A stretch of 37,757 nt of DNA from Gaiellales bacterium. Its GTDB lineage: Bacteria; Actinomycetota; Thermoleophilia; BMS3ABIN01. Positions 6,593-33,408 of the stretch are shown here, piece after piece; positions within the stretch are counted from its first letter, which is position 1, and the number at the start of each line of letters is the position of its first letter. The stretch lies in contig QZKG01000034.1 of the NCBI GenBank assembly GCA_003599855.1, positions 1 to 37,757 on the forward strand, given 5' to 3'. A model generated the notes under the pieces. The model made no database searches, had not been told where the DNA came from, and saw only the letters and a program-made list of their open reading frames with translations. A program made the position numbers and the translations under genes.

Positions 6593-6630
6593 GGAGCCCG
6601 CTGACCGGGCAGGGCTGCGATCCGGCCGGG

Positions 6631-6978: not shown

Positions 6979-7121
6979 CAGGATCTCCCAGTCCGTTTTT
7001 ACCTTGATGCCCCGGTGCATCTGCGGCCTGAAACAGGATCAGGACCATCGTCAATCATACAGCATCCGGGGTCACAGCTTAAGTCATACCCCGGCCGCCG
7101 CCGCGTAAACCCCGCGCGTTC

Positions 7122-7149
7122 TTGACCCCGGCGCGCCAGATGCTATTAT
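7122..7149 (+). promoter_or_regulatory. Probable sigma-70 promoter of the ferredoxin gene
   Basis: TTGACC at 7122-7127, a 16-bp spacer and TATTAT at 7144-7149. It lies in the 294-bp gap between the divergent STAS and ferredoxin genes and implies a leader of roughly 115 nt. Called by eye. Confidence 0.6.
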
Positions 7150-7272
7150 TTTACATCGATAAAACATGCCGGAAAGCCGCGGCTGCCGGTGGTTTTCAAA
7201 AACTGCTGCCGTGGTATTAAAGGAATGTTTCCAAGCTAGAGTCCCGCTTCGGGACAGGAAAGGAGAACGTCA

Positions 7273-7467
7273 ATGAAAGTCAGGATCGAACCGAGGGACG
7301 AGTGTTTGGGCGACGCCATCTGCTGCGATGAGTGCCCCGAGGTTTTTGCAATGGATGACGATGACCTCGCATATGTGACCAACGAGTCGCCGGACGAGAG
7401 TCTGCGCGAGGCCGTCCAGAACGCCGCCGACGAATGCCCGGCGGAGATCATCATCATCGAGGACTGA
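7273..7467 (+). CDS. Single-cluster ferredoxin with Asp at the second ligand position
   Basis: 64 residues, ATG 7273 after GGAAAGGAGA. Residues 11-22 read CLGDAICCDECP: C11, C17 and C21 match the first, third and fourth positions of the usual CxxCxxCxxxCP motif, and D14 replaces the second cysteine. The distal cysteine is C55 in DECPAEII. This is the arrangement of small monocluster ferredoxins that hold [3Fe-4S] or Asp-ligated [4Fe-4S], as in Pyrococcus furiosus ferredoxin. An extra C18 is adjacent. The protein is very acidic, as expected for an electron carrier. It probably forms a unit with the cupredoxin gene 49 bp downstream, although the partners act on opposite sides of the membrane. 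Confidence 0.9.
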   Translation: MKVRIEPRDECLGDAICCDECPEVFAMDDDDLAYVTNESPDESLREAVQNAADECPAEIIIIED

Positions 7468-7516
7468 CGTTCCCTGACAGCCTGCGGCCCCCGGGACGCG
7501 GGGAGGAAGGACGACC

Positions 7517-7885
7517 ATGACAGTCCGGGCAACCAGGAGCTTGGCGCTCGCGGCCGCCATCATCGTGGCGGCTGCGCTGGCGGCTTGCGGCGGGGAGAAG
7601 GAAGAAGCCACCGGCCCCGTGGCTACCGGCGGCGCCGCCCAGGTGGAGATGAAGGATATCAGTTACGCCCCGGAGGACGTCACGGTCAAGGCAGGACAGA
7701 AAGTGCTCTGGGTCAACAATGACCCGGTGGGCCACACCGTGACCGATGAGAGCGGCCGGTTCGACTCGGGCGTCATCGGCGGCGGCGGTGAGACCTTCGA
7801 GCAGGTCTACGACGAACCGGGGACATATGCCTACCACTGCACGATCCACCCGACGATGAAGGGAACGGTCATCGTCGAGGAGTGA
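7517..7885 (+). CDS. Cupredoxin (plastocyanin-like) lipoprotein
   Basis: 122 residues. The signal peptide ends in the lipobox LAAC (C24), giving a membrane-tethered extracytoplasmic protein. A type-1 copper domain occupies about 42-120 with all four ligands: H73 (VGHTVT), C108 and H111 (YHCTIHP) and axial M114. The C-x2-H-x2-M spacing is that of short-loop plastocyanin/pseudoazurin relatives. It should be a one-electron carrier on the outer face of the membrane. GGGAGGAAGG precedes ATG 7517. A strong terminator follows. No oxidase or reductase partner is encoded beside it. Confidence 0.93.
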   Translation: MTVRATRSLALAAAIIVAAALAACGGEKEEATGPVATGGAAQVEMKDISYAPEDVTVKAGQKVLWVNNDPVGHTVTDESGRFDSGVIGGGGETFEQVYDEPGTYAYHCTIHPTMKGTVIVEE

Positions 7886-7924
7886 AGTGCGGGCGAGGCC
7901 CGCGCAGAATCACAGGCATTACCG

Positions 7925-7956
7925 GAGAACGCGCCCAGGGGCGCGTTCTCTTTTTT
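7925..7956 (+). terminator. Intrinsic terminator after the cupredoxin gene
   Basis: GAGAACGCGCC (7925-7935) and GGCGCGTTCTC (7940-7950) form a perfect 11-bp stem with loop CAGG, followed by six T. It ends the ferredoxin-cupredoxin unit and separates it from the reductase gene. Confidence 0.93.
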
Positions 7957-7994
7957 ATGGCGGCGGCTGCCCCCGTGGGCCAGCCGCGGTCAAG

Positions 7995-8022
7995 TTACTG
8001 CCTGGGCGGCCGAGGGTAGGAT
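7995..8022 (+). promoter_or_regulatory. Possible promoter of the glutaredoxin-reductase gene
   Basis: TTACTG at 7995-8000, 16 bp, then TAGGAT at 8017-8022, 31 bp before the start codon and just after the preceding terminator. The -35 is a weak match, so this is tentative. Confidence 0.35.
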
Positions 8023-8053
8023 GTACTGGACGGACCGCCGCACCGGGAGGACC

Positions 8054-9250
8054 ATGAAGCCCGAGATAACCATATACACGATGCCCACCTGACCCCACTG
8101 CATCCGGTTGAAGGCCCACCTCCGTGAGAGGGGGATAGATTTCAACACGGTGGACGTGGCAGACGACACCGGGGCGCTGGCCGAGATGAAGGAGCTCACG
8201 GGCAAGAGCTATGTGCCCCAGATCTTCGTCGGCGGTGAATATATCGGCGGCTACGACGAGTTCACCCTCTATGAGGCGCGGGGCGAGCTGGACAGGGCGC
8301 TGGGGATCGAAGCTGCCGACCGGGACGGCAGCGTCATCCACGACCTGATCATCGTGGGTGGCGGCCCCGCCGGCCTCACTGCGGCCGTCTATGCGGCCCG
8401 CAAGAACATGGACACGCTGCTGATCGCCGAGATGCTGGGCGGCCAGCCCATGGAGACGGCCGAGGTGGAGAATTACATGGGCTACCAGTTCGTCACGGGT
8501 CCTGAGCTGATGGAGCGTTTCGAGGAACAGACACGCAGGTACCGGATCGGCATCCGGGAAGGCGAGCAGGTCACCCGGGTGGAGATGGAGGGCAAGATCA
8601 AGCTGGTCGTGACGGCCGCGGGTGAGCGTTACCGGGCGCGGACCCTCATCATCGCCACCGGCAAGCGCGCGAAGTTCCTGGGGGTGCCCGGCGAGCGAGA
8701 GTACGCCGGCCGGGGCGTCAGCTACTGCGCCACCTGTGACGGCCCGCTGTTCCAGGGGCAGCCGGTGATGGTGGCCGGCGGCGGCAACTCCGGCCTGCAG
8801 GCCGCCCTCGAACTGGCGCCGACCTGTCCCGCCGTGCACCTGGTGTCGCTCACCGACCTCACCGGGGACGAGATCCTCCGGGACAAGGTGCTGGCAGACG
8901 GGCGCATCACCAGGCATATCCGCTGGAAGCCGGTGGAGATCCGCGGGAACAGCGGCGTGGAATCGGTGGTCATAGAGGCGGTGCAGGACGGCGGCGAGCG
9001 CCGGGAGATCGAGGTCAGGGCCATCTTCGTGGAGGTGGGCATGAGCCCCAACTCAGGCTGCGTGGTCGACCTGCTGGACCTGAACGCCGCCGGCGAGATA
9101 ATCATCGACCAGGAGGGGCGCACCGGCCTGCCGGGGGTGTTCGCCGCGGGGGACGTGACCCAGGTGCGCGACAAGCAGATCGTGGTCGCTGCCGGCGAGG
9201 GCGCGAAAGCCGCGCTTTCTGCCCACGAGCACCTGCTGAACAGCAAATGA
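8054..9250 (+). CDS. Selenocysteine-containing glutaredoxin fused to AhpF/thioredoxin-reductase-like flavoprotein
   Basis: 398 residues if the in-frame TGA at 8090-8092 is read as selenocysteine. ATG 8054 has GGGAGG at 8045-8050, while no start downstream of the TGA has a ribosome site. The reading is MKPEITIYTMPT-U13-PHC16, where glutaredoxins have C-P-x-C, so the TGA falls exactly on the catalytic cysteine. The glutaredoxin domain (1 to about 85) continues with YVPQIFVGGEYIGG. The flavoprotein part has the FAD motif GGGPAG (102-107), the redox pair CATC (C225, C228) and GGGNSG (242-247). The second nucleotide-binding segment lacks the HRR of NADPH-specific thioredoxin reductases and resembles AhpF, suggesting NADH. 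Predicted role: electrons flow from NAD(P)H through FAD and C225/C228 to the selenol glutaredoxin centre for thiol reduction. Adenine deaminase follows after 39 bp. Alternatives are a sequencing error or a decaying gene. Confidence 0.85.
8093..8133 (+). promoter_or_regulatory. Possible bacterial SECIS-type hairpin following the in-frame TGA
   Basis: Directly after the TGA, CCCCACT (8093-8099) pairs with AGAGGGG (8127-8133) with one A-A mismatch. Then CA/TG, CGG/CCG and AGG/CCT continue the stem towards a CCCA loop. Position and size fit bacterial selenocysteine insertion elements, which lie in the coding sequence just 3' of the UGA. I folded it by eye and cannot judge its stability against other folds. 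Confidence 0.4.
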
Positions 9251-9289
9251 CAGGACGGTGGTCCGCACCGGGCAGAAAGGGAGGCGCTG

Positions 9290-11017
9290 TTGGGGCTTGA
9301 GGAACTGATCGCTGTGGGCAGGGGCGACGCCCCCGCCGACCTGGTTATCACAAATGCCACCGTGGTCGATGTGCTCGCCGGCCGCCTGGCTGTCACCGAC
9401 GTGGCCGTGCACCAGGGGCGGGTCGCCGGGTTCGGCTCTTACGAGGGGCGGGAGGTCATGGACCTGGAAGGCCGCTACCTCGCCCCCGGCTTCATCGATG
9501 CCCACCTGCACATCGAGAGCACCATGCTGACGCTGCCGGAGTTCGCCCGGGTGGTGGCGCCGCGGGGGACCACCGCAGTGGTCTGCGACCCCCATGAGAT
9601 CGCCAACGTCCTGGGGATAGAGGGCATCAACTACATGCTGCGCGCCAGCGCCGGCCTGCCGGTCACGGTGTACGTGATGCTGCCTTCCTGCGTGCCGGCC
9701 ACCGCCATGGAGACTTCGGGGGCAGAGCTGAGCAGCAGCGACCTGGCGCTGATGCTGGGCCAGGACAGGGTGCTGGGCATCGCCGAGATGATGAACTACC
9801 CGGGGGTGATCGCCGGCGACAGCGAGACGCTGGCGAAGATACGCATCGCCGAATGGCGCCGCGTGGACGGGCACGCTCCCGGCCTCACGGGCAAGGACCT
9901 CTGCGCCTACATCTCGGCCGGCATCCATTCCGACCACGAGTGCGTCACTGCCGCCGAAGCTGGCGAGAAGCTGGAGCTGGGTATGTACATCATGGTCCGC
10001 GAGGGTTCGACGGCCAGGAACCTGGAAGAGCTGGTCAAGGTCATCACTCCCGACAACTCACGCCGGTTCATGCACTGCAGCGACGACAGGCACCCGGGCG
10101 ACCTGCTGGCCGAGGGCCACATCGACCACAACATCCGCCGGGCGATAGCGGCGGGGGTCGACCCCATGACCGCCTACCAGATGGCCACCATCAACACCGC
10201 CGCGTACTTTGGTCTCCGGGACGCCGGCGCCATCGCCCCCGGGCGGCGCGCCGATTTCGCCGTCCTCGACGACCTCGAGGCCGTCACCGTCTCCCGGGTG
10301 TTCAAGGGCGGCCAGGTGGTGGCTGAAAACGGCCGCGCCCTGGCTTTCACGGCTGAGCTGCCCGGCCGCGTGGTGCGCAGCACGGTCAACATCAGGGATG
10401 CCGGCCCCGACCGGCTCCGGGTGGCCGCGGGCGAGGGGCCGATGCGCGTGATCGGCATCATCCCCGACCAGATCGTGACAAGCAGCCTGTTTCTCGAGCC
10501 CCGGGTGGAAGCAGGCCTGGCCGTCGCCGACACCGGGCGCGACATCCTCAAGCTCGCCGTCTTCGAGCGTCATCTGGCATCCGGCAACGTCGGCATCGGC
10601 TTCGTCCAGGGCCTGGGCTTCAGGCAGGGGGCCATCGCCACCTCGGTGGCCCACGATTCCCACAACGTCATCGTGGCCGGCGCCGGCGACGCCGACATGA
10701 GCCGGGCCGTGGAGGAGATCGTGGCCATGCAGGGCGGCGCCGCGGTGGTGGCCGGCGGTAAGGTGCTGGCCGCGCTCGAGTTGCCCGTGGCCGGCCTCAT
10801 GTCCGACCAGCCTGCCGAAGCAGTGGCCGCCGGTTCGGCGGCGGTGATCGCCGCAGCCGCGGACCTGGGCTGCGCCCTGCATGACCCGCTCCTGGCTCTC
10901 TCCTTCCTGGCGCTTTCGGTTATCCCCGAACTGAAACTCACCGACATGGGGCTGGTGGACGTGGGCCGGTTCCAGCTGGTCGGGCTGTTCGGCGATCAGG
11001 CTCATCCGGCACGCTGA
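9290..11017 (+). CDS. ade: Adenine deaminase (EC 3.5.4.2)
   Basis: 575 residues, start TTG 9290 with GGGAGG 6 nt upstream. This is the amidohydrolase-superfamily adenine deaminase (Ade/AdeC type), not the eukaryote-like adenosine deaminase homologue. The metal-site strand-1 motif is DAHLHIES (H72, H74). Further hallmarks are CDPHEIANVLG, MLPSCVPAT, GIAEMMNYPGV, GHAPGLTG, SAGIHSDHE and CSDDRHP. The C-terminal half holds the family's second domain (GNVGIGFVQGLG, SVAHDSHNVIVAG). Length matches the family. The enzyme converts adenine to hypoxanthine and ammonia in purine salvage and uses Mn or Fe. It lies 39 bp after the glutaredoxin-reductase gene, so the two may be cotranscribed without an obvious functional link. 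Confidence 0.96.
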   Translation: MGLEELIAVGRGDAPADLVITNATVVDVLAGRLAVTDVAVHQGRVAGFGSYEGREVMDLEGRYLAPGFIDAHLHIESTMLTLPEFARVVAPRGTTAVVCDPHEIANVLGIEGINYMLRASAGLPVTVYVMLPSCVPATAMETSGAELSSSDLALMLGQDRVLGIAEMMNYPGVIAGDSETLAKIRIAEWRRVDGHAPGLTGKDLCAYISAGIHSDHECVTAAEAGEKLELGMYIMVREGSTARNLEELVKVITPDNSRRFMHCSDDRHPGDLLAEGHIDHNIRRAIAAGVDPMTAYQMATINTAAYFGLRDAGAIAPGRRADFAVLDDLEAVTVSRVFKGGQVVAENGRALAFTAELPGRVVRSTVNIRDAGPDRLRVAAGEGPMRVIGIIPDQIVTSSLFLEPRVEAGLAVADTGRDILKLAVFERHLASGNVGIGFVQGLGFRQGAIATSVAHDSHNVIVAGAGDADMSRAVEEIVAMQGGAAVVAGGKVLAALELPVAGLMSDQPAEAVAAGSAAVIAAAADLGCALHDPLLALSFLALSVIPELKLTDMGLVDVGRFQLVGLFGDQAHPAR

Positions 11018-11186
11018 GCCCGCAGAGCCGAGGGCCGCCCGCCTGGCATCCGGTTTGCCGGCATCAGCCGACCGTATATACCCGGACTCATATCAAATAT
11101 TAAAAACTAAAGCCCGCGCCCGCAATTGCCGAGAATGGCGATTAATAACACGTCGTTTCATGGTGTTCCAAGCGAAGGAGATTGCA

Positions 11187-11996
11187 ATGGGGGGAGCGCG
11201 GCGTTACTTCAACCTGGCGGGGTATATCCTGCTAACCGCCGCCCTGTTGATGGCGGCGGGCACATCGACAGGCATCGGCGGCGACAAGGTCGGTGAGAAC
11301 GGTTACGAGGTCGGCAGCGCCAGCGCGGCGCCCGCGACCGCCAAGGTCGGCGACATGATCCACCTGGCCGGATCAGGGATGATCCCCGACGAGAGCCTCC
11401 TCTTCTACTTCGGCGTGCAGGTCGACACCATCGTGTACATCGTCGACGTGGGCTACGGCAGCAGCGACTCCGGCGGCAACTGGAGCTTCGACACGCCCGT
11501 GCCGCCCAGCGTCCAGGTGGCGGACATGAACGCGCCTCCGGATGTGGCCATCCCCGCAGCACCCGACCCCGCGGCAGGGGTTGCGCCGGCAGCAACCGCA
11601 CCGGAGCCCGCGGCGGTCAGCCCTGCGGCAGCCACGAGCGCCCCCCAGGGGGTCTCCAGGCTCTTCAGCGGCGGCATGGTGCCCGGCTTCTCGCCCACGG
11701 CGGGACTGGCCGAGGGCGACTGGGTGCCCGTGACCGAAGGAGCATGGCACTACGGCGCTCTTGCCTTCGACGATTACGGGACTTACTACTTCACCAACAC
11801 CAACTTCATCGAGGTCACGGGCGGCACGGTGGACGATTCCGGCAGCAGCCCGGGCTCATCCAGTCCCTACACCTCATCCTACGGGTCCACCAGCGGTGAC
11901 ATACTGCCCGAGACGGGCTGGCCGGCGGCAGTCGTGGCCCTGTGCGGCTTGATCTGCATCGCGGCGGGCTTCCTGCTCAACCGCAGGGAAAGCTGA
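11187..11996 (+). CDS. LPETG-anchored surface protein, unknown function
   Basis: 269 residues from ATG 11187, which has AAGGAG 7 nt upstream; the longer frame from 11055 covers an A+T-rich leader. An N-terminal signal segment (about 8-24) is followed by an exposed domain with GDMIHLAGSGMIPDESLLFY and SSDSGGNWSFDTP, then an Ala/Pro-rich linker (about 110-155), a second small region, and a Ser/Gly-rich spacer. The C-terminus is a textbook sortase signal: LPETG at 240-244, a hydrophobic stretch, and the basic tail NRRES. It should be covalently attached to peptidoglycan, which supports a Gram-positive envelope. The exposed part has no domain I recognise. No sortase gene is in the window. It stands alone between adenine deaminase and the B12 riboswitch. 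Confidence 0.82.
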   Translation: MGGARRYFNLAGYILLTAALLMAAGTSTGIGGDKVGENGYEVGSASAAPATAKVGDMIHLAGSGMIPDESLLFYFGVQVDTIVYIVDVGYGSSDSGGNWSFDTPVPPSVQVADMNAPPDVAIPAAPDPAAGVAPAATAPEPAAVSPAAATSAPQGVSRLFSGGMVPGFSPTAGLAEGDWVPVTEGAWHYGALAFDDYGTYYFTNTNFIEVTGGTVDDSGSSPGSSSPYTSSYGSTSGDILPETGWPAAVVALCGLICIAAGFLLNRRES

Positions 11997-12020
11997 CTAT
12001 TTTGCCACTGCTATTCCCGG

Positions 12021-12049
12021 TTGAATTCATCGCCGGGCGGTTATATAGT
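12021..12049 (+). promoter_or_regulatory. Probable promoter of the riboswitch-bzaF unit
   Basis: TTGAAT at 12021-12026, a 17-bp spacer and TATAGT at 12044-12049, placing the start of transcription near 12056, immediately before the riboswitch aptamer. The -10 is identical to the one proposed for the nuo operon. Confidence 0.65.
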
Positions 12050-12063
12050 CCCGCGTGGAAACA

Positions 12064-12223
12064 GAATATGGCTGGGTGCCCGTAAGGGAGAATAGGGAAG
12101 CCGGTGCGAGACCGGCGCGGGCCCGCCGCTGTAACCGGGGTTTTCCTTCCCCATGCCACTGGGCCGCGGTCCGGGAAGGCGGGAGGGAAGCGCGTGACCC
12201 GGGAGCCAGAAGACCTGCCCAGC
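12064..12223 (+). ncRNA. Cobalamin (adenosylcobalamin-type) riboswitch aptamer
   Basis: The conserved landmarks occur in order: GGGTGCC then GGGAATAGGGAAGCCGGTG (B12 riboswitch 5' core), GAGACCGGCGCGGGCCCGC with CGCTGTAACC (the CCCGCxxCTGTAA element), GCCACTGGG, and AGCCAGAAGACCTGCC (the B12 box, 12205-12220). This combination is specific to cobalamin riboswitches. It is followed by an intrinsic terminator and then the ThiC-like gene, so high cobalamin should stop transcription. Edges are approximate. Confidence 0.93.
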
Positions 12224-12276
12224 CTCCATAGAAAAGCCGCTCTTCGGGAAGCAAGAGGATGGCAGGATGCCAGATG

Positions 12277-12307
12277 CCCTTGAGCCTCACGGCTTCAAGG
12301 GTTTTTT
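12277..12307 (+). terminator. Riboswitch-controlled intrinsic terminator
   Basis: CCCTTGA+GCC pairs with GGC+TCAAGGG (one bulged T) around the loop TCAC, followed by six T at 12302-12307. It sits about 55 nt after the B12 box and 38 nt before the start codon. The expected mode is transcription attenuation: terminated when cobalamin is bound. Confidence 0.9.
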
Positions 12308-12345
12308 GCTGTTCAAGGGGGCGGCCCTGAGATGACGGAGGCGTC

Positions 12346-13617
12346 ATGAAGACAGAACTGGAAAAGGCACTGGAGGGCAAGACAACCGGACGGGTCAGGC
12401 AGTTAGCCGAGAGCGAGGGCGTCCCGGCGGAGCAGCTCAGGCAGGCGGTCGCGGACGGCGGCGCCGTGGTTGTCTCCGGCCGTGGCCGCGGCGGCGCGGT
12501 GGGCATCGGCCGGGGCTTGAGGACCAAAGTCAACGCCAGCATCGGCACTTCTTCAGCCATCATCGACCTGGGCATGGAGCTGGAGAAGGCGCGCGTCGCC
12601 CGGGACTCGGGCGCCGACACCCTGATGGAGCTCAGCACCGCCGGCGACCTCGACCACATCCGCCGCTCGGTGCTTTCCGAGGTGGGGCTGCCGGTGGGCA
12701 GCGTGCCGCTCTACCAGGCCAGCGCCGAGGCCGCCGCCGGGCACGGCTCCCCCTACGCCATGGACGACGACCTCCTCTTCGAGGTGATCGAGCGCCAGGC
12801 CCGGGACGGCATCGGTTTCATGGCGATCCACTGCGGCATCAACCGCCGGACCGTGCAGGTGCTCAGGGACCAGGGCGGCCGGGAGGGCGGCGTGGTCAGC
12901 CGCGGGGGCGCCTTCATGATGGGCTGGATGGGGCAGAGCGGGCGCGAGAACCCGCTCTACGAGCAGTTCGACCGCCTGGTGGAGATCCTGCGCGAGTCGG
13001 ACGTGGTCCTGAGCCTGGGCAACGGCATGCGCGCCGGCGCCATCGCCGACTCCACCGACAAGGCCCAGATCCAGGAGCTCATCATCAACGCGGAGCTGGC
13101 CGACCGGGCGCGCCGGGCGGGCGTCCAGGCGATGCTCGAAGGCCCCGGGCACATCCCCATCGACGAGATCGAGGCCAACGTCATCCTGCAGAAGCGCTTA
13201 AGCGGCGGCAAGCCCTTCTACATGCTGGGGCCCATCACCACCGACATCGCCCCCGGCTACGACCACATAACCGCGGCCATCGGCTCCGCCTGGGCCGCCG
13301 GCTACGGCACCGACTTCATCTGCTACGTCACCCCCTCGGAGCACCTGGGGCTGCCCTACCCCGGCGACGTGCGGGAGGGCGTGATGGCGGCGCGCATCGC
13401 CGCCCACGTGGGCGACATGGTCAAGCTGGGGAAGCGCTCCCGCGACCTGGAGATGGGCAACGCCCGCCGCGGGCTCGACTGGGAGCGGCAGTACGCCCTG
13501 GCGCTGGACCCGGCGCGGGCGCGGGCCATCCGCGGCGAGCGGCCCGGCAGCGGCCAGGAGGAGTGCAGCATGTGCGGCGAGCAGTGCGCCCTCAAGGTGG
13601 CGCGGGAGTGCGTCTGA
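12346..13617 (+). CDS. bzaF: ThiC-family radical SAM enzyme, probably 5-hydroxybenzimidazole synthase BzaF
   Basis: 423 residues, ATG 12346 with GGAGG upstream. The whole protein is ThiC-like: IGTSS, GINRRTVQVL, VSRGGAFMMGWM, ENPLYEQFD, EGPGHIPIDEI, FYMLGPITTDIAPGYDHI, CYVTPSEHLGLP. The C-terminal radical SAM cluster motif is CSMCGEQC (C407, C410, C414). Two things point to the BzaF branch rather than thiamine ThiC. The gene is under a cobalamin riboswitch, not a TPP riboswitch. And residues 226-231 read NGMRAG where ThiC, as I recall it, has DGLRPG. BzaF converts aminoimidazole ribotide to 5-hydroxybenzimidazole, the precursor of the cobamide lower ligand made without oxygen. No other bza, cob or thi gene is adjacent, so the later O- and C-methylation steps may be absent or elsewhere. 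Residual doubt: a ThiC that has acquired B12 control. Confidence 0.85.
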   Translation: MKTELEKALEGKTTGRVRQLAESEGVPAEQLRQAVADGGAVVVSGRGRGGAVGIGRGLRTKVNASIGTSSAIIDLGMELEKARVARDSGADTLMELSTAGDLDHIRRSVLSEVGLPVGSVPLYQASAEAAAGHGSPYAMDDDLLFEVIERQARDGIGFMAIHCGINRRTVQVLRDQGGREGGVVSRGGAFMMGWMGQSGRENPLYEQFDRLVEILRESDVVLSLGNGMRAGAIADSTDKAQIQELIINAELADRARRAGVQAMLEGPGHIPIDEIEANVILQKRLSGGKPFYMLGPITTDIAPGYDHITAAIGSAWAAGYGTDFICYVTPSEHLGLPYPGDVREGVMAARIAAHVGDMVKLGKRSRDLEMGNARRGLDWERQYALALDPARARAIRGERPGSGQEECSMCGEQCALKVARECV

Positions 13618-22691: not shown

Positions 22692-24593
22692 TTACCCCTG
22701 TCCGGTTTGCAGTAGCACCCAGGCAGCCAGCAGCGCCAGCGCCCCGATGAACATGGTGAAAAGGTAGGCCTGCAGCCGGCCCGACTGCGTGGGCCTGAGC
22801 GCCTTGCCGACGCCGCGGAAGAAGCGGGCGGCGCCGTTGACGAAGCCGTCGATGCCAGCGTCGTCGACGAAGCGCCAGAGGACGCCGCTGAACCACTTGA
22901 CGGGGTTGACGATGACGGCGGCGTAGATCTCGTCGACCCAGTACTTGTTGTAAAGGATGTAGTACATCGCGCCGGTCCTCGCCTTGACCATCTCCGGCAG
23001 CTGCGGCCGCTTGATATAGAACTGCCAGGCGGCGAAGATGCCGCCGAGGCCGATGGTGGCCGAGAGCGCCATCAGCAGCGCCGACACGGCGCCGAAGCCG
23101 TGGCCACCCTCAGCGGGCAGGACGCCGGCGAACACGTGGTGGAGCAGGTTGTCGATGTGACCGTCCTCCGGCGGCAGCCCCAGGATGAGGCCGATGAGCG
23201 CCGACGGCACCGCCAGGATGATGAGCGGCGCGGTCATGCTCGGCGGCGACTCGTGGGCGTGGGCGAAGACCTCCGGGTCGGTGCGAGGCTCGCCGTGGAA
23301 GGTCATGAAGATGAGCCTAAACATGTAGAAGGCGGTTAAAAAGGCCGTGACGATGCCCACTGCCCAGAGCAGGTAATAGCCCTCGTGGAACACCCCGGCC
23401 AGGATCGAGTCCTTGCTGAAGAAGCCGGCGAAGCCGGGGGCGCCGGATATGGCCAGGGCGCCGATGATGAAAGTCCAGTAAGTGATCTTCGTCTTGCTCT
23501 TCAGGCCCCCCATCCTGCGCATGTCCTGCTCGCCGGAGAGCGCGTGGATCACCGAGCCGGAGCAGAGGAACAGCAGCCCCTTGAAGAAGCCGTGGGAGAC
23601 CAGGTGGAACATGCCCGCCGCCCAGGCGCCTACACCCAGGGCCAGGAACATGTAGCCCAGCTGGCTCACGGTGGAGTAGGCCAGCACCTTCTTGATGTCG
23701 TTCTGCACCAGGCCGATGGAGGCGGCGAAGATGGCGGTGAAGCCGCCGGTGATGGCCACCACCAGCATCGCCGTCTCCGACTCGGCGAAGAGGGGGCTGG
23801 AGCGGGCCACCATGTAGACGCCGGCGTTGACCATGGTGGCGGCGTGGATCAGGGAGCTGACCGGGGTGGGACCCTCCATGGCGTCCGGCAGCCAGACGTG
23901 CAGCGGGAACTGGGCGCTCTTGCCCACGGCGCCGGTGAAGAGCAGCAGGCAGATGGCGGTCATCATGCCGCCGCCCACCGCTGTTTCGCTGTCGAAGACC
24001 CCGGCGTAGCTCAGGGTGCCGAAGGTGATGAAGATGAGCATCACGCCGAGGCTGAAGCCGAAGTCGCCCACCCGGTTGACCAGGAAGGCCTTGGTGCCCG
24101 CCGCCGAGGCGCTCAGCTTGGGGAACCAGAAGGAGATGAGCAGGAAGGAGCAGAGCCCCACCGCCTCCCAGAACACGTAGAGCAGCAGGTAGTTGTTGGC
24201 CAGCACCAGCATGAACATGGAGAACATGAAGAGGTTGAGGTAGGCGAAGAAGCGGTAGTAGCCCTGGTCGCCGTGCATGTAGCCGATGGAATAGACGTGC
24301 ACCATCAGGCCCACGGTGGAGACCACCAGCAGCATCACCGCCGCCAGCTCGTCCACCAAAAAGCCGATATCCACCTGGAAGCCGCCCACGGCGATCCAGG
24401 AGTAGGCGTTCCAGTCGAGGGTCTGACCCCGCTCCACCTGCACCAGCAGGAACATGCACAAGAGCCAGGAGACCGCCACCGAGGCCACCGGCAGGTAGTG
24501 GCTCTTCTCCCCGAAGTAGCGCTTGCCTAACAGCAGCGTCACCATGAAGGAGACGAGCGGCAGGACCGGTATCAGTACGACGGCTGCTTTCAT
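22692..24593 (-). CDS. nuoL: NADH-quinone oxidoreductase subunit L
   Basis: 633 residues, a typical NuoL length. It is the distal antiporter subunit with the long lateral helix at the C-terminus. Recognisable segments are YVFWEAVGLCSFLLISFWF, GKSAQFPLHVWLPDAMEGPTP, NDIKKVLAYSTVSQLGYMFL and SGAPGFAGFFSKDSIL. The C-terminal region has NKYWVDEIYAAVIVNPVKWF, the usual end of NuoL before the last helix. Key lysine and glutamate residues are in place. The ATG at 24593 directly follows the nuoK stop codon. Confidence 0.97.
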   Translation of the reverse strand: MKAAVVLIPVLPLVSFMVTLLLGKRYFGEKSHYLPVASVAVSWLLCMFLLVQVERGQTLDWNAYSWIAVGGFQVDIGFLVDELAAVMLLVVSTVGLMVHVYSIGYMHGDQGYYRFFAYLNLFMFSMFMLVLANNYLLLYVFWEAVGLCSFLLISFWFPKLSASAAGTKAFLVNRVGDFGFSLGVMLIFITFGTLSYAGVFDSETAVGGGMMTAICLLLFTGAVGKSAQFPLHVWLPDAMEGPTPVSSLIHAATMVNAGVYMVARSSPLFAESETAMLVVAITGGFTAIFAASIGLVQNDIKKVLAYSTVSQLGYMFLALGVGAWAAGMFHLVSHGFFKGLLFLCSGSVIHALSGEQDMRRMGGLKSKTKITYWTFIIGALAISGAPGFAGFFSKDSILAGVFHEGYYLLWAVGIVTAFLTAFYMFRLIFMTFHGEPRTDPEVFAHAHESPPSMTAPLIILAVPSALIGLILGLPPEDGHIDNLLHHVFAGVLPAEGGHGFGAVSALLMALSATIGLGGIFAAWQFYIKRPQLPEMVKARTGAMYYILYNKYWVDEIYAAVIVNPVKWFSGVLWRFVDDAGIDGFVNGAARFFRGVGKALRPTQSGRLQAYLFTMFIGALALLAAWVLLQTGQG

Positions 24594-24902: not shown

Positions 24903-25396
24903 TGCTTCTCCCTCTTGGCCAGGAGGACCGCGCCCACGATGGCCACCAGCAGCACTAGCGAGACCACCTCGAAGGGGAAGGCGTAGCTGTTGAAGACCAG
25001 TTCGGCTATCTTCTCGTCCTCGGGGTTCTGCGCCAGGCTCTCGGAGCGGTAATTGGCGCTGCCCAGCACCGCGGTGAAGACGATGGTGGCTACGGCCACG
25101 AACACCAGGGCCAGCCACGACTGGCGGCTGAAGAAGAGCTTCAGGTCGCCGGTGCGGTGGCGGGTGAGCATGATGGCGAAGATGATCAGGATCGAGATGG
25201 CGCCCACATAGATCAGCACCTGGGCCGCCGCGATCAGTTCGGCGTGGAGCAGGATGTAGATGCCCGCCACGGCGATGAAGCAGAGCACCATCGACAGGGC
25301 GCTGTGGATGAGGTTCTTGAAGGACACCACGCCGATGGCGAAAACCACCACCATGAAGGCCAGTATGTAGAAGGCGGTGGGCGAGAACTCAGTCAT
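24899..25396 (-). CDS. nuoJ: NADH-quinone oxidoreductase subunit J
   Basis: 165 residues with five membrane helices. NLIHSALSMVLCFIAVAGIYILLHAELIAAAQVLIYVGAI is the conserved NuoJ helix 2-3 region with the pi-bulge segment and a membrane glutamate. The start ATG 25396 overlaps the end of the preceding chimeric gene by 8 nt, so the two are translationally coupled. This is the gene expected directly after nuoI in canonical operons, and it here follows the gene carrying the putative NuoI C-terminal half. Confidence 0.96.
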   Translation of the reverse strand: MTEFSPTAFYILAFMVVVFAIGVVSFKNLIHSALSMVLCFIAVAGIYILLHAELIAAAQVLIYVGAISILIIFAIMLTRHRTGDLKLFFSRQSWLALVFVAVATIVFTAVLGSANYRSESLAQNPEDEKIAELVFNSYAFPFEVVSLVLLVAIVGAVLLAKREKQ

Positions 25397-27785
25397 CAGC
25401 GCCTCCCTTGACCTTGCCGTTCCCGCCCGGGGCGGCCGGCGGCCGCGGCTCGGGCGGCGTCTGGCCGCGGGCCTCGGCGAGCATGTTGCGCCTGAGGGCG
25501 CCGTGCTCGAAGGTGGAAAGCTCGAAGTCGGGCGTCTGGGCCAGCGCCCCCGCCGGGCAGACCTCGACGCAGTCGCCGCAGAAGATACAGCGGGTGAGGT
25601 CGAGCTGCCAGTCGGTGAGGGTCCGCTCCCGAAGGAACAGGGCCCCGGTGGGGCATTTGCTGGCGCAGCGGCCGCAGGAGACGCAGTCGGTCTCGTAGAG
25701 CGGCGCGTCGAAGGGCGTGGAGACGACCATGTCCGAGCCGCGCCCGATGAAATCGTAGACCCCGGAGCCGGTGATGTACTTGCAGGCGCGCACGCAGCGG
25801 CCGCAGGCGATGCAGCGGTTGGGGTCGCGCTTGACGAAAGCGTGGCGGGTGTCGCGCCCGTAGATATGCTGGTTGCCGGGGAAGCGGTTGCCCTCCGCCT
25901 TGAGGATGGCGAAGCGGTTGCCCTCGTCCACCGTCAGGCCCGAAGCGATGGCGTAGCGCCTGAGCTTGCAGGTCTCGACCCCCTCGCAGATGCATTGCAG
26001 GCAGCGGCGGCCTTCCAGCGTGGCCGCCTGCTCGGAGAGGCCGTGCTCCACCTCGCGGAAATTGTCCTTGCGTTCAGCGGCGGCCGCCTGGGGCGACTGC
26101 TGCCGCTCCACCTTCTCCTGGCGGAAGGCCGGGATCGCCAGCATCTCCGGCCGGGCCGGCGGCACCTCCGCCTCATACGCCGCCATGTCCGCGCCGGAGA
26201 GCCAGGCGTCCATGGCCCAGGCGGCGCGCTTGGCGGCGCCGATGGCCTCCACCACCGTCGCCGCGCCCGTGAAGGCGTCGCCGGCGACGAAGACTTCCGG
26301 GCGCCGGGTCTGGAAAGTGACCGGGTTGGCGTCGATGGTCTTCCACTTGGTGGCGTCGATGCCGCAGGATTCATCGAAAAGCGGCCGTGACTCGCCGCTC
26401 TCAGCGTCGTCGAAATAAATCTTGGGTGACTGGCCGATGGCCGGGATGATCGAGTCCAGCTCGATGACGTGCTCGGAGCCCTCCACCGGCTGGGGCCGCC
26501 GCCGGCCGCTCTCGTCTGGCTCGCCCAGCTCCATCTTCTGGCACTTCACGCCCGTGACCTGCCCGTTCTCGCCGATGACCTCCACCGGCGTGGTGAGGAA
26601 GACGAAGTTGACCCCCTCCTCCTGGGCGTCGCGGACCTCGATCTCGTGGGCGGGCATCTCCTTTTGGGTGCGGCGGTAGATGACGGTGACCTCTTTGGCG
26701 CCCAGGCGGATGGAGACCCGCGCCGCGTCCATGGCCGAGAAGCCGCCGCCGATGACCGCCACCCTGTCGCCGATGTCCGGCGGGTTGCCCAGGGCGACCT
26801 CGCGCAAATACTCCACCACCGGCAGCACGCCCTTCAGGTCCTCTCCCGGGACGCGCATGCTGTTGCTCTCGTGGGCGCCGATGCCGATGAAGACGGCGTC
26901 GTAGCCCTCCGCCAGCAGGCTGTCGATGGAGCAGTCGGGGCCCATGGCGGTGTTGGTCTTGAGCTCCACCCCCATCTTCCAGAGCGGCTCCAGCTCGGCG
27001 TCCAGCAGGCGCTTGGGCAGGCGGTACTCGGGGATGCCGTAGCGCAGCATGCCGCCGGGCTCCGGCAGCGCCTCGAAGATGGTCACGGCATGGCCCTTCA
27101 GGGCCAGGTAATAGGCGTTGGTGAGGCCCGCGGGGCCGGCGCCGATGACCGCCACGCGCTTGCCGGTGGCGGGCGCCGGCTCCTCGGGGAAGAACCCCTT
27201 GCTGATGGCGACGTCGCCCACGAACCGGTGCGACAGGCGGATGGAGATGGGCTCGTCCACGGCGCCGCGGCGGCAATGGCCCTCGCAGGGGTGGGGGCAG
27301 ATGCGGCCGACGATGGCCGGGAAAGGCAGGTTGGCCTTGAGCACCCGCTGTGAATCCTCGTAGTTGCCGGTGGTCAGGAGGCCGATGAAGGCGGGCGCGT
27401 CGACGTTGGTGGGGCAGCCGTACTTGCAGGGCGGCAGGCAGTAGGCGTTGTGGTCCGAGAGCATCAGCTCCAGGTAGGTCTTGCGCAGGCGCTCCAGGTG
27501 CTCGCTGGTGGTGGTGACCGCCATGCCCTCGGCGCAGTAGGTGGCGCAGGAGGCCACCGGGCGGTCCTCGCCCTCCACCTCCACGACGCAGACCCGGCAG
27601 CCGCCGTAGGGCTCCAGCTCCTTGAGGATGCAGAGGTGGGGGATCCTGATGCCGACGGATTTGGCCGCCTCGAGGATGGTGTCGCCGCTGTGGGCCTTGA
27701 CCTCATGGCCGTCGATGGTCAGCGAGACCAGCTGGCCGCGGTCGGCGTCCCTCAGGGGCGGCAATATCTGGGGCCGTTTCATCAT
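25389..27785 (-). CDS. Chimeric complex I input subunit: NuoG-type [2Fe-2S] + GltD/NfnL-like flavoprotein + NuoG/HydA clusters + NuoI C-terminal half
   Basis: 798 residues from ATG 27785, overlapping the previous stop as ATGA. Order of domains: a NuoG/HydA N-terminal [2Fe-2S] with C52-x10-C63-x2-C66-x13-C80; a GltD-type cluster region (C116, C120, C124 and C163, C167, C171); an FAD motif VIGAGPAG (214-221); an NAD(P)H motif VIGGGFSAMDAAR (345-357) with the RR of VIYRRTQKEMPA, which favours NADPH in GltD relatives; an FAD motif FVAGDAFTGAATVVEAI; C595/C598/C606; then two [4Fe-4S] motifs (C658-C668, C701-C711) as in NuoG and HydA; and a last one, TRCIFCGDCVEVCP (C733-C743), followed by TPDFELSTFE, which matches the second half of NuoI. 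The molybdopterin-like half of NuoG is missing. It should bring NAD(P)H or ferredoxin electrons into the complex. Confidence 0.88.
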   Translation of the reverse strand: MMKRPQILPPLRDADRGQLVSLTIDGHEVKAHSGDTILEAAKSVGIRIPHLCILKELEPYGGCRVCVVEVEGEDRPVASCATYCAEGMAVTTTSEHLERLRKTYLELMLSDHNAYCLPPCKYGCPTNVDAPAFIGLLTTGNYEDSQRVLKANLPFPAIVGRICPHPCEGHCRRGAVDEPISIRLSHRFVGDVAISKGFFPEEPAPATGKRVAVIGAGPAGLTNAYYLALKGHAVTIFEALPEPGGMLRYGIPEYRLPKRLLDAELEPLWKMGVELKTNTAMGPDCSIDSLLAEGYDAVFIGIGAHESNSMRVPGEDLKGVLPVVEYLREVALGNPPDIGDRVAVIGGGFSAMDAARVSIRLGAKEVTVIYRRTQKEMPAHEIEVRDAQEEGVNFVFLTTPVEVIGENGQVTGVKCQKMELGEPDESGRRRPQPVEGSEHVIELDSIIPAIGQSPKIYFDDAESGESRPLFDESCGIDATKWKTIDANPVTFQTRRPEVFVAGDAFTGAATVVEAIGAAKRAAWAMDAWLSGADMAAYEAEVPPARPEMLAIPAFRQEKVERQQSPQAAAAERKDNFREVEHGLSEQAATLEGRRCLQCICEGVETCKLRRYAIASGLTVDEGNRFAILKAEGNRFPGNQHIYGRDTRHAFVKRDPNRCIACGRCVRACKYITGSGVYDFIGRGSDMVVSTPFDAPLYETDCVSCGRCASKCPTGALFLRERTLTDWQLDLTRCIFCGDCVEVCPAGALAQTPDFELSTFEHGALRRNMLAEARGQTPPEPRPPAAPGGNGKVKGGADD

Positions 27786-29599
27786 TTGAGCGCGCACCTC
27801 CCGGACTTGCAGGCGCCGCCCTTGCCGATGTGGTCCTTGAACTCCTGTTGGAAGAACTCGAGCCCGGTGAGCAGGGGCCTCACGGCTCCCCGCCCCAGGC
27901 CGCAGAGGGACCCGTCAGCGATGTCGTGGGCCAGCTCCTGGGCCAGGGCCAGGTCCTCTTCGGTGCCCTTGCCGTTGCAGATGCGGTCGACTATCTCCAG
28001 CAGGCGCCGGGTTCCCAGCCGGTCCGGTACGCATTTGCCGCAGGCCTGGGAGGCCGACCAGGAGAGGCATTCCCGCGCCAGCTGGACGATGCAGGTCCCG
28101 TCGCCGATGACGCGGATGGTGCCGGAGCTCAGGTTGCCCCCGGTCTCGGCGATGGAATCGAAGTCCAGCGGGATGTCGAAGAGGCCAGGCGAGATGAAGC
28201 CGCCGCCGGGAGCGCCGATGAGCGCCGCGCGGGCGTCGGCGGTGAGGCCGCCGGCCGCCTCGGCCAGCTTCTTGAGGCTCCAGTTCATGGGCGCCTCGTA
28301 AAGCCCGGGCCGCGCTACCGCCCCGGAAAGGGCGAAGAGCCTGGTGCCGGGCGCGTGCTCGGCGCCGATCTGCTGGAACTCGCGGGCGCCGTTGGCCATG
28401 ATCCAGGGCAGCGCCGCCAGGGTCTCCACGTTCTCGACGATGGTGGGCAGGCCGTAAAGGCCGCTCCTCGACGGGTACGGCGGGCGCACCCGCGGCATCG
28501 GCCGCCGCCCCTCGATGGTTTCCAAAAGCGCCGTCTCCTCGCCGCCGGCGTAAGCGTCCGGCACCGCCAGGACCGTGATGGAGAATTCGAAGCCGGTTCC
28601 CTCGATGGGGGCGTCCAGCAGCCCCTCCTCCCGCGCCGCGGCGATGGCGGCCTCGAGCCGCTCCACCGCCCGCGCGTAGCGGGACTCTATATAGACGATC
28701 CCCTCGCGCGCGCCGATGGCCCAGGCGGCGGCCATCATGCCCTCGATGACCCGGAAGGGGCTGTTCTCCAGGATGACGCGGTCCTTGTAGGAATCAAGGT
28801 CGCCCTCGCTGGCGTTGCAGATGACGTACTTGCGCGGCGCCTCGGCTTCCAGCGCCTCGCGCCACTTGGCGCCGGTGAGGTAGCCGCCGCCGCCCCGCCC
28901 CCTGAGGCCGCTGATGGTGATTTCCTCCACCAGCTCCGCCGGGGTCATGGAGGCGAACTGCTCCACCGTCGCCCGGAAGCCGCCGGCCGCCCCGTAGGCT
29001 CCGATGTCGGCCGGGTCGCCGGCGGCGAAACCGCCCAGGACCACCGGGGGGCAGCCTTCGACGGTGACGTACTCCTCCGGGTACTCGAGCGCCTCGGTCT
29101 TCCCCGGCGCCCCGGGCCCCAGCTGGTCGTAATAGCTGGCCACGGCGAAGGTCTGGCTCAGCCAGACGCCGTTCCTGCTGGCCATGCGCGCGAGCACTTT
29201 AGGCGTCAGCGTCTCGGCGTCGATGAGCGAGGCCGCCAGGCAGCTGCCGCGGGCGGGCGGCAGGGGGCCGTCCCCCTCGCTCAGCCAGTCCCCCAGCTCC
29301 AGCGTCTGGCTCCCGGGCCTGACCCAGGCGAGCATGGGGCCGGCGCCGGCGTCGAAGGTCATCATCTGACCGGGCTTGGAATCCTTGAACGACACCTTGA
29401 TGGCGGTGCCCGGGCAGGTCTGTTCGCAGAAGGTGCAGGAGATGCAGCGCGGCGTCACGCCGTCGTCCCTGAGGCGCAGGCGTATGAGCCCGCGGCTGCG
29501 TTCCGGCAGGTGGCGCCGCTCCTCGGGATACTGGACCGTCACTTTGCGGGTGAGCATGTGGCTGATGGTGGCCTGGAGCCCTTTGAGCAGGCCGATCAT
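27782..29599 (-). CDS. nuoF: Chimeric complex I subunit: NuoI N-terminal half + reduced NuoE + NuoF
   Basis: 605 residues. Residues 1-70 match the N-terminal half of NuoI (GLLKGLQATISHML, KVTVQYPEERRHLPERSRG) with one [4Fe-4S] motif, C52-C55-C58-C62; the second NuoI motif is absent. Residues about 112-165 resemble the helical start of NuoE (LTPKVLARMA, WLSQTFAVASYYDQL), but the [2Fe-2S] thioredoxin-like part with its four cysteines is missing. NuoF follows: FMN loop SGLRGRGGGGYLTGAKW (230-246), CNASEGD (261-267), AGGEETALLE, GLYGLPTIVENVETLA. The N3 cluster motif reads C520-GK-C523-VP-D526, with aspartate for the third cysteine and C566 as the distal ligand. Predicted NADH:FMN entry site of complex I. 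Start GTG/ATG region 29599 lies 36 bp after nuoH. Confidence 0.9.
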   Translation of the reverse strand: MIGLLKGLQATISHMLTRKVTVQYPEERRHLPERSRGLIRLRLRDDGVTPRCISCTFCEQTCPGTAIKVSFKDSKPGQMMTFDAGAGPMLAWVRPGSQTLELGDWLSEGDGPLPPARGSCLAASLIDAETLTPKVLARMASRNGVWLSQTFAVASYYDQLGPGAPGKTEALEYPEEYVTVEGCPPVVLGGFAAGDPADIGAYGAAGGFRATVEQFASMTPAELVEEITISGLRGRGGGGYLTGAKWREALEAEAPRKYVICNASEGDLDSYKDRVILENSPFRVIEGMMAAAWAIGAREGIVYIESRYARAVERLEAAIAAAREEGLLDAPIEGTGFEFSITVLAVPDAYAGGEETALLETIEGRRPMPRVRPPYPSRSGLYGLPTIVENVETLAALPWIMANGAREFQQIGAEHAPGTRLFALSGAVARPGLYEAPMNWSLKKLAEAAGGLTADARAALIGAPGGGFISPGLFDIPLDFDSIAETGGNLSSGTIRVIGDGTCIVQLARECLSWSASQACGKCVPDRLGTRRLLEIVDRICNGKGTEEDLALAQELAHDIADGSLCGLGRGAVRPLLTGLEFFQQEFKDHIGKGGACKSGRCALK

Positions 29600-32489: not shown

Positions 32490-32499
<10 letters not shown>
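31948..32499 (-). CDS. nuoC: NADH-quinone oxidoreductase subunit C
   Basis: 183 residues. NuoC (30-kDa) motifs are present: [48 protein letters not shown] and GHPELNRIL. It binds along NuoD in the peripheral arm and has no cofactor. It overlaps nuoB by 10 nt at its start and nuoD by 4 nt at its end, so translation is coupled through B-C-D. Confidence 0.96.
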
Positions 32500-33038
<539 letters not shown>

Positions 33039-33039
33039 C

Positions 33040-33408
33040 TCAGGTCCATTCCAGGGCGTCTTTGCCCCATGCGTAGAAGAGGCCGAGCAGCAGGACGAAG
33101 ATGAAGATCATCATCTCGATGAAGCCGGTCATCCCCAGGTCGCGGTAGACCATCGCCCAGGGGTAGAGGAAGACCGCCTCCACATCGAAGATGACGAAGA
33201 GGAGGGCGTAGATATAGTAGCGGACGGCGAAGGGGCTCCAGCTGTCCCCGGTTGGCTCGATGCCACATTCGTAGGGGGTGAGCTTCTCGGGGTAGGCGTG
33301 GCGCCGCTGGACGAGCCGGGATACCCCCAGGACGGCGAGGACGAAAGCGATATCAGCAAGGCCGAGGACGGCGACAGACAGATAGCTGTAGGCATAATCA
33401 GAAGTCAA
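33040..33408 (-). CDS. nuoA: NADH-quinone oxidoreductase subunit A
   Basis: 122 residues, three membrane helices, first gene of the operon. The start is TTG 33408, supported by AGGAG 8 nt upstream. NuoA features are [12 protein letters not shown] and [23 protein letters not shown], with the loop cysteine near the quinone site retained. Downstream genes follow tightly (B after 1 bp). Confidence 0.96.

What the first reader, a model, noticed from the sequence alone, without database searches (positions are those of the whole stretch)
25389..29599. nuoI appears split between two chimeric genes by insertion of an electron-input module
Between nuoH and nuoJ, where nuoI normally lies, two adjacent genes carry the two halves of NuoI. 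The first begins with NuoI residues up to and including the first CxxCxxCxxxCP motif (C52-C62) and continues as NuoE/NuoF. The second ends with TRCIFCGDCVEVCP plus TPDFELSTFE, which matches the second NuoI cluster and C-terminus, directly before nuoJ. Order: H - I' EF - G'/GltD I'' - J. No whole nuoE, F, G or I exists in the operon. The simplest reading is that an NADH-dehydrogenase module was inserted into nuoI between its cluster motifs in an 11-subunit-type complex I, so that two polypeptides must meet to rebuild NuoI. Domain calls are read from the sequence; the insertion history is inference.
Basis: partly seen in the sequence, partly recalled or inferred. Interest (0 to 1): 0.93.

Follow-up and report, generated by a model that had tools for sequence, protein, structure and literature searches.

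The report
Complex I with a split NuoI
In this actinobacterium and many relatives, the iron-sulfur subunit NuoI of respiratory complex I is encoded as two halves on two different proteins that flank a transhydrogenase-like electron-input module, so the two proteins likely have to join to rebuild its iron-sulfur clusters; the input is predicted to take electrons from NADPH.

Summary
Between nuoH and nuoJ the window encodes X1 (605 aa: NuoI N-half, linker, NuoF) and X2 (802 aa: 2Fe-2S, GltD-like, NuoG-type ferredoxin, NuoI C-half). The halves align to complementary parts of the same NuoI chains (Nqo9 6-77 and 85-149). No intact NuoI or NuoE was found in the genome, 90.7% complete. It is no artefact: 17 of 18 same-family relatives carry X1 full length, 10 of these without an intact NuoI. 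The half-motif cysteines are invariant in 53 aligned X1 and 63 aligned X2. Another family of the class keeps a fuller form (I'-NuoE, NuoF with extra clusters, X2-I''), also between H and J. Ktedonobacteria and oxoacid:ferredoxin-oxidoreductase loci carry the same cassette. Trees fit one origin. The module is of StnABC/NfnABC type, not a plain NADH module. In the window lineage NuoE and NuoF's ferredoxin domains are missing and the NuoF flavin pocket looks eroded. Best reading: two polypeptides assemble a split ferredoxin whose clusters take cysteines from both chains, with NADPH as predicted donor. Pairing and donor are untested.

The parts
27782..29599 (-). X1: NuoI N-half + linker + NuoF domain, 605 aa
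   Evidence: aligned with 52 relatives
29369..29599 (-). I': NuoI N-terminal half (residues 1-77), with N-terminal helix region, YPE motif and first CxxCxxCxxxCP (C52, C55, C58, C62)
   Evidence: NuoI models E 1.8e-17; NuoI chains in PDB; cysteines invariant 53 of 53
29009..29368 (-). linker of X1 (residues 78-197), in the place where another family of the class has NuoE
   Evidence: no Pfam match there; comparison with I'-NuoE proteins
27827..29008 (-). NuoF domain of X1 (residues 198-591), some flavin-pocket motif residues changed, third N3 cysteine is Asp
25389..27797 (-). X2: 2Fe-2S + GltD-like + NuoG-type ferredoxin + NuoI C-half, 802 aa; likely starts at ATG 27785 or 27782, overlapping the X1 stop
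27504..27731 (-). N-terminal 2Fe-2S domain of X2 (residues 23-98)
   Evidence: PF13510 E 6e-21
26190..27440 (-). GltD/NfnB-like domain (two cysteine sets, FAD and NAD(P)H Rossmann folds; residues 120-536)
   Evidence: PF14691, PF07992; NfnB/StnC structures
25638..25844 (-). NuoG-type 2x[4Fe-4S] ferredoxin domain (motifs a and b; residues 652-720)
   Evidence: PF22117 and Fer4 models; cysteines conserved
25467..25628 (-). I'': NuoI C-terminal half (residues 724-777), second CxxCxxCxxxCP (C737, C740, C743, C747) and NuoI C-tail
   Evidence: cysteines invariant 63 of 63
33040..33408 (-). nuoA
   Evidence: PF00507 E 6.1e-40
32490..33038 (-). nuoB
   Evidence: PF01058
31948..32499 (-). nuoC
   Evidence: PF00329
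30818..32017 (-). nuoD
   Evidence: PF00346
29636..30805 (-). nuoH
   Evidence: PF00146
24899..25396 (-). nuoJ
   Evidence: PF00499
24594..24902 (-). nuoK
   Evidence: PF00420 E 8.1e-26
22692..24593 (-). nuoL
   Evidence: PF00361, PF00662
21126..22691 (-). nuoM
   Evidence: PF00361, PF01059
19608..21125 (-). nuoN
   Evidence: PF00361 and its place after nuoM

Best explanation
The NuoI subunit of this complex I is encoded as two halves, one at the front of X1 and one at the end of X2, which likely assemble into one ferredoxin domain whose [4Fe-4S] clusters would each take cysteines from both proteins, wiring a StnABC/NfnABC-like module, predicted to be fed by NADPH at X2's GltD-like flavin site, to the quinone-reducing core, which is predicted to pump protons. 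Shown: the two complementary halves, their cysteine conservation, the operon order, the failure to find any other NuoI or a NuoE in this genome, the relatives, and the kinship of X1/X2 to NfnABC/StnABC. Inferred: assembly across chains; that the module entered nuoI as a cassette, once; and that in the window lineage the NuoF domain, without NuoE and with an eroded flavin pocket, is now mainly a scaffold, so that ferredoxin-linked bifurcation was lost while another family of the class kept the parts for it.
For: Complementary halves of the same NuoI chains, including the N-terminal region and the C-tail, which generic ferredoxins lack. Cysteine sets invariant in 53 of 53 X1 and 63 of 63 X2; in the full lists, 119 of 120 I'-NuoE proteins keep the first motif, and motif c ends 119 of 120 X2 hits, the other being a cut-off protein. 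X2 has three cluster motifs (two expected to pair as in NuoG/HydA) and X1 has one, so the odd ones fit each other. No NuoI over the cut-off in G000, nor in 10 of the 17 same-family relatives that carry X1, three of them listed at 98-100% completeness. I' found upstream of X2 in 58 of 78 named loci. Split halves form a clean group against 20 intact NuoI, support 100 joined, 68 and 66 for each half alone. dN/dS under 0.3 for both halves in 5 of 5 pairs. Module kinship: X2 to 9bov_A E 8e-194 and Foldseek 1.4e-70, X1 to 9bov_B 2.9e-42. StnC takes NADPH at its GltD-like FAD (PMC10482914, passages). NuoF: the Asp of CNADE is kept in 9 of 53 and the first Asn of NNVET in 0 of 53, against 4 of 4 for both in the other family and 2 of 2 in canonical NuoF.
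Against: AlphaFold2 gives pLDDT mostly under 50 to both half-ferredoxins, but also to the known NuoG-type ferredoxin of X2, so it neither supports nor refutes; no complex was modelled. Motifs b and c of X2 have a spacing that ferredoxin models accept (FdxA_fam E 2.4e-14), so pairing inside X2 is conceivable. The own genome is 90.7% complete. N3 cysteines 1, 2 and 4 are kept in 53 of 53 and many flavin-pocket residues in 46 or more of 53, so NuoF may still carry electrons or FMN. Flavin-contact roles of the residues are recalled, not tested. Seven Ktedonobacteria loci hold an X2 with no I' upstream. One I'-NuoE protein (P0053) has lost a motif cysteine. In L157, one of the 78 loci, neither half is recognised.
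Confidence: 0.72

Rival explanations
1. Motifs b and c of X2 form a dicluster ferredoxin within X2, while motif a and I' of X1 are unpaired or bind single clusters, so no polypeptides need to meet.
For: TIGR01971 and FdxA_fam can align across motifs b and c; spacing is ferredoxin-like.
Against: a and b match the NuoG-type pair (PF22117 654-720) and stay conserved. c is followed by the NuoI C-tail. I' keeps all four cysteines in 53 of 53 and a YP motif at the NuoI place in 52 of 53, unexplained if unpaired.
Confidence: 0.12
2. The window complex still takes NADH at the NuoF domain of X1, as ordinary complex I does, and the GltD-like part is secondary or regulatory.
For: NuoF fold predicted with pLDDT mostly above 90; Lys of the GxKW site kept in 52 of 53, the two Glu of GEET in 51 and 53 of 53, N3 cysteines 1, 2 and 4 in 53 of 53.
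Against: CNADE Asp kept in 9 of 53, first Asn of NNVET in 0 of 53, third N3 cysteine in 32 of 53; NuoE not found in the genome. GltD cysteines and most Rossmann glycines of X2 are invariant in 63 of 63.
Confidence: 0.25
3. The layout arose not by insertion of a cassette into nuoI but by partial duplication of nuoI and two separate fusions, with later loss of the whole copy.
For: Some genomes hold both an intact NuoI and the split form, so an intermediate with several copies is plausible.
Against: The break falls at one place, leaving about 7 residues of Nqo9 outside both alignments, and the order I' ... F ... X2-I'' is the same in the lineages seen, as one insertion would give.
Confidence: 0.3
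4. X1 and X2 are a separate soluble transhydrogenase that happens to lie in the nuo operon, and the complex I lacks NuoI.
For: The module is closest to soluble NfnABC/StnABC; two loci with oxoacid:ferredoxin oxidoreductase genes use the cassette with no other nuo genes nearby.
Against: I' keeps the NuoI N-terminus in the 50 Nuo-type loci listed but not in those two loci; X1 and X2 lie between nuoH and nuoJ in many relatives with overlapping codons in the window; no other NuoI over the cut-off in 10 genomes.
Confidence: 0.06

Closest known systems
StnABC / NfnABC (Nfn-Bfu) electron-bifurcating transhydrogenase (PDB 8oh5, 9bov, 9n5u; PMC10482914, PMC9304861)
   Same: X2 is collinear with the StnC/NfnA-type subunit through 2Fe-2S, GltD and NuoG-type ferredoxin; X1's NuoF domain matches the B subunit best. 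The f3 family of the class also has NuoE and the B subunit's 2Fe-2S and C-terminal ferredoxin.
   Different: Sits inside a complex I operon; X2 ends in half a NuoI instead of the FdhF-like domain of StnC; the window form lacks NuoE, the N-terminal 2Fe-2S and the C-terminal ferredoxin of the B subunit.
Nuo-Bfu (predicted complex I with a BfuABC module; PMC9304861, passages seen)
   Same: A bifurcation-type module replaces NuoEFG in a nuo operon; the f3 family fits this idea.
   Different: The held main text has no occurrence of NuoI, GltD, Actinobacteria or Ktedono-, and the passages seen place Nuo-Bfu in other phyla; the window form lacks the bifurcation parts.
NuoI / TYKY / Nqo9 of respiratory complex I
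   Same: Both halves together match it over most of its length.
   Different: One chain there, two chains here, with the split between the two cluster motifs.
Designed and natural half-ferredoxins, 'semidoxins' (PMC12648291, passages seen)
   Same: A dicluster ferredoxin made from two chains.
   Different: The designed ones are identical halves that dimerise; here the halves differ and are fused to two large redox subunits.

Membership tests
Respiratory complex I (proton-pumping core) | NuoA, B, C, D, H, J, K, L, M, N present | tested here: met
   Pfam matches; same order in relatives
Respiratory complex I (proton-pumping core) | one-chain NuoI | tested here: not met
   none over the cut-off in G000; the top two hits are the halves
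Respiratory complex I, 14-subunit type | NuoE, NuoF, NuoG as separate subunits | tested here: not met
   NuoE not found in the genome; F and G-like parts are in fusions
NuoI | N-terminal region with YP motif, two CxxCxxCxxxCP motifs, C-tail | tested here: met
   all present, but divided over two proteins
NuoI | two [4Fe-4S] clusters N6a and N6b | not testable with these tools
   cysteines invariant; clusters need spectroscopy or structure
StnABC / NfnABC (Nfn-Bfu) | GltD-like domain with FAD and NADPH sites joined to 2Fe-2S and NuoG-type ferredoxin | tested here: met
   sequence and fold matches; NADPH use itself not testable
StnABC / NfnABC (Nfn-Bfu) and Nuo-Bfu | NuoE-type subunit with 2Fe-2S cluster | tested here: not met
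   not found in the window genome; present in the f3 family
StnABC / NfnABC (Nfn-Bfu) and Nuo-Bfu | B subunit with N-terminal 2Fe-2S and C-terminal 2x[4Fe-4S] (exit to ferredoxin) | tested here: not met
   C-terminal ferredoxin motifs absent in 53 of 53 window-type and 6 of 6 Ktedonobacteria-type proteins, present in 4 of 4 of the f3 family; no C-x4-C pair in residues 96-140 of 53 X1 proteins
Nuo-Bfu | electron bifurcation or confurcation with NADH and ferredoxin | not testable with these tools
   predicted lost in the window form because parts are missing

The most novel reading that the evidence does not exclude
NuoI was broken once by an Nfn-type bifurcation cassette, and the resulting split ferredoxin, with both [4Fe-4S] clusters held jointly by two polypeptides, became a portable plug: it connects the module to complex I in Thermoleophilia, to a NuoB island in Ktedonobacteria and to an oxoacid:ferredoxin oxidoreductase elsewhere, and in the window lineage it makes an NADPH-driven proton-pumping complex I whose NuoF is a relic.
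Probability: 0.45. Interest if true: 0.93.

Novelty: new variant of a known kind. Interest (0 to 1): 0.86.

Why it matters
NuoI carries the two clusters that hand electrons to N2. The solved NuoI chains that both halves matched here (2fug_9, 7ar7_I, 5lc5_I and others) are single chains. A natural, conserved split would show that complex I can be rebuilt from the inside by a different electron-input machine, which bears on how the N-module was acquired. It gives a natural two-chain dicluster ferredoxin, relevant to the old idea that ferredoxins arose from half-size pieces. It also predicts an NADPH-driven complex I, and cultured Ktedonobacteria carry the split cassette, so pairing and donor can be tested at the bench.

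Tried and rejected
AlphaFold2 of X1 and X2 alone: not used as evidence on the split, because the known NuoG-type ferredoxin of X2 also scored under 50. Assembly error or single broken genome: rejected, since the layout recurs in many genomes. Halves as decaying remnants: rejected on cysteine invariance and low dN/dS. Generic ferredoxin origin of the halves: rejected on NuoI-specific N- and C-terminal matches. The first Gly of the NuoF GAGxF motif, absent in 53 of 53 X1, was dropped as a sign of erosion because both canonical NuoF compared have Ser there. G022 and G057 (family f5) have nuo-like genes and, in the same open frame, a GltD-like part and a dicluster region matching NuoI profile 40-121: judged a different fusion, not followed. 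A phylum scan of 396 genomes with the X2 C-terminus found matches in 20; 9 cover at least 114 of 127 columns (8 of the window's family, own genome included, plus G027), the other 11 stop at column 94 or before; only 10 first-look candidates per genome were scored, and the f3 genomes were not among those listed. Literature, listings only unless said: complex I + NuoI + Thermoleophilia (none), NuoI + split + fused (one paper), bifurcation and NuoEFG, Ktedonobacter + nuo, split gene/TYKY, Nuo-Bfu, split or half ferredoxin, Thermoleophilia + complex I. No listing showed a split NuoI; passages of four papers were seen. Subscription papers are mostly not held.
Full report
What is in the window. On the minus strand lie nuoA, B, C, D, H, then X1 (29599-27782), X2 (27797-25389), then nuoJ, K, L, M, N. 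Stop and start codons overlap at X1/X2 and X2/nuoJ. X1 is NuoI-like at residues 3-77, has an unassigned linker, and is NuoF-like from 198 to 591. X2 has a 2Fe-2S domain, a GltD-like domain, a NuoG-type double ferredoxin motif, and a third CxxCxxCxxxCP motif followed by the NuoI C-tail.

The halves are NuoI. Residues 1-80 of X1 alone hit NuoI models first (E 1.8e-17); residues 722-802 of X2 alone hit the NuoI-related formate hydrogenlyase subunit (1e-12) and NuoI (1.4e-12). Among solved structures the best hits of both are NuoI/TYKY/NdhI chains. On Thermus Nqo9 they cover 6-77 and 85-149, so the break lies between the two cysteine motifs. In dicluster ferredoxins each cluster takes three cysteines from one motif and the last from the other (recalled, not tested here), so a working NuoI rebuilt from these proteins would have both clusters bridging two chains.

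No spare copy found. In the own genome (77 contigs, 90.7% complete) the two best NuoI hits are X1 and X2 themselves and nothing passes the cut-off; NuoE (PF01257) was not found. Of 18 same-family relatives, 17 carry X1 over its whole length. Seven of the 18 also have a NuoI over the cut-off; the other 10 with X1 do not, among them G002, G005 and G015, listed at 98-100% completeness. G004 (86% complete) has neither. In the f3 family, 3 of the 8 genomes searched have a NuoI over the cut-off (in these genomes only 60 first-look candidates were scored).

Conservation. In 53 X1 proteins (all hits, the window included; alignment), C52, C55, C58 and C62 are invariant. In 63 X2 proteins (the window and 62 of the 119 other listed hits; 425 hits in all), C737, C740, C743 and C747 are invariant. 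In the complete lists, 119 of 120 I'-NuoE proteins keep the first motif (P0053 has lost one cysteine). Of 120 X2 hits, 118 fit the three-motif pattern; P0205 is cut before motif c, and P0261 keeps b and c but departs from the pattern at motif a. dN/dS in five pairs was 0.05-0.13 for I' and 0.04-0.29 for I'', the latter on only 48 codons; in two of the five pairs dS is near or above 1, so those values are rough.

Related forms. (1) The f3 family of the same class has A B C D H - [I'-NuoE, 253 aa] - [2Fe-2S-NuoF-double ferredoxin, about 635 aa] - [X2-I''] - J K L M N. (2) Ktedonobacteria, with cultured species such as Ktedonobacter racemifer, Dictyobacter and Thermogemmatispora, have a four-gene island NuoB - [I'-linker] - [NuoF] - [X2-I'']. 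All 8 genomes tested (5 named Ktedonobacteria species, 2 MAGs titled Chloroflexi or Proteobacteria, 1 actinobacterial MAG) also have a NuoI over the cut-off; stretches from K. racemifer (nuoD to M) and Dictyobacter kobayashii (nuoA to M) show an ordinary nuo cluster around it. (3) L103 and L185 have I'-NuoE, NuoF and an X2 extended by a TPP-binding domain (PF02775 E 1.9e-18 and 2.5e-19), next to an oxoacid:ferredoxin oxidoreductase alpha gene and, in L103, a gamma gene. There I' lacks the NuoI N-terminus. Of the 78 loci kept from the best 80 of 369 relatives, I' lies upstream of X2 in 58; 10 contigs end too soon, 7 are lone X2 copies in Ktedonobacteria, and 3 fail the pattern: L093 is cut at the contig end, L158 has X1 but no I'' in the same open frame as the rest of X2, and L157 shows neither half.

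Origin. With 46 distinct split pairs and 20 intact NuoI, the joined alignment separates split from intact with support 100; I' alone and I'' alone also separate with none misplaced but support only 68 and 66. The f1, f3 and Ktedonobacteria-type groups are clean in the joined tree; with I'' alone, f1 and the Ktedonobacteria type each have one misplaced row. Of 78 loci, 50 passed the strict pattern and 28 were not used; L164 and L174 gave no intact sequence. In a reduced set with the two oxidoreductase-type loci added, these fall inside the split group (split plus these versus intact: 81). The alignments are short. One origin with later spread between phyla is the simplest reading; an insertion of the E-F-X2 cassette into nuoI would give the order directly, but duplication with fusions is not excluded.

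What the module is. X2 matches 9bov_A (residues 22-745, E 8e-194) and StnC 8oh5_C (24-744, 1.2e-180), and the same chains lead by Foldseek. X1's NuoF matches 9bov_B and 8oh5_B. In StnABC, NADPH is oxidised at the FAD of the GltD-like part and the HydBC-like part bifurcates (PMC10482914, abstract and passages). A complex I with a BfuABC module in place of NuoEFG has been predicted as Nuo-Bfu in other phyla (PMC9304861, passages). The f3 family has the parts for that. The window lineage does not: NuoE not found in the genome, no C-terminal ferredoxin on NuoF, and in NuoF the Asp of CNADE is kept in 9 of 53, the first Asn of NNVET in 0 of 53 and the third N3 cysteine in 32 of 53. Other pocket residues are kept in 46 or more of 53. 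The six Ktedonobacteria-type NuoF examined (four named Ktedonobacteria, two MAGs) have lost the CNADE Asp in 6 of 6, but keep the first Asn of NNVET in 4 of 6 and all N3 cysteines.

Mechanism. Predicted path: NADPH to FAD of X2, through its 4Fe-4S sets and NuoG-type ferredoxin, to the split NuoI, to N2 in NuoB, to quinone, with protons moved by H, L, M, N. The genome has heme-copper oxidase-type genes (three hits over the cut-off, one of them partial), so a respiratory chain is plausible. Not tested: cross-chain pairing, the donor, the role of the NuoF domain. AlphaFold2 did not help: both half-ferredoxins and the control ferredoxin scored mostly under 50.

Verdict. Its reading is right in the main point (NuoI split around a module) and needs correcting where it calls the module a plain NADH dehydrogenase. 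It is a new variant of complex I, related to Nuo-Bfu and Nfn-Bfu, and strange enough to deserve a structure.

Noticed in passing
L103:3348-11305 and L185:2040-9652: The same split-ferredoxin cassette sits with oxoacid:ferredoxin oxidoreductase genes, and X2 is fused to a TPP-binding domain (Pfam): a use of the split ferredoxin outside complex I.
   Followed up: partly
L105, L121, L127, L130, L140, L141, L144: Ktedonobacteria hold X2-I'' genes with no I' upstream in the fetched stretch, perhaps alternative partners for one I'.
   Followed up: no
L186 (G000:C5:48000-62000), 4943-12957: The window genome has a second NfnABC-like cluster with a NuoF-like gene, a GltD-like gene and a 2Fe-2S-GltD protein ending in a molybdopterin oxidoreductase domain.
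   Followed up: partly
L067 and L072 (G022:C26, G057:C7): Family f5 genomes have nuoA-H-J-K divergent from nuoB-C-D and a GltD-like protein with a NuoI-like dicluster region in the same open frame: another fusion of the two.
   Followed up: no
L089:5267: In one genome titled bog_752, NuoF and X2 lie in one open frame of 1750 aa.
   Followed up: no
L158 (G013): The X2 open frame breaks before I'' in this MAG, a frameshift or sequencing error; I'' is still found by tblastn.
   Followed up: no
window 27782-29599, residue 526 of X1: The third N3 cysteine is Asp in 13 of 53 X1 proteins (window included) and Gly in 8 of 53, while the other three N3 cysteines never change.
   Followed up: partly
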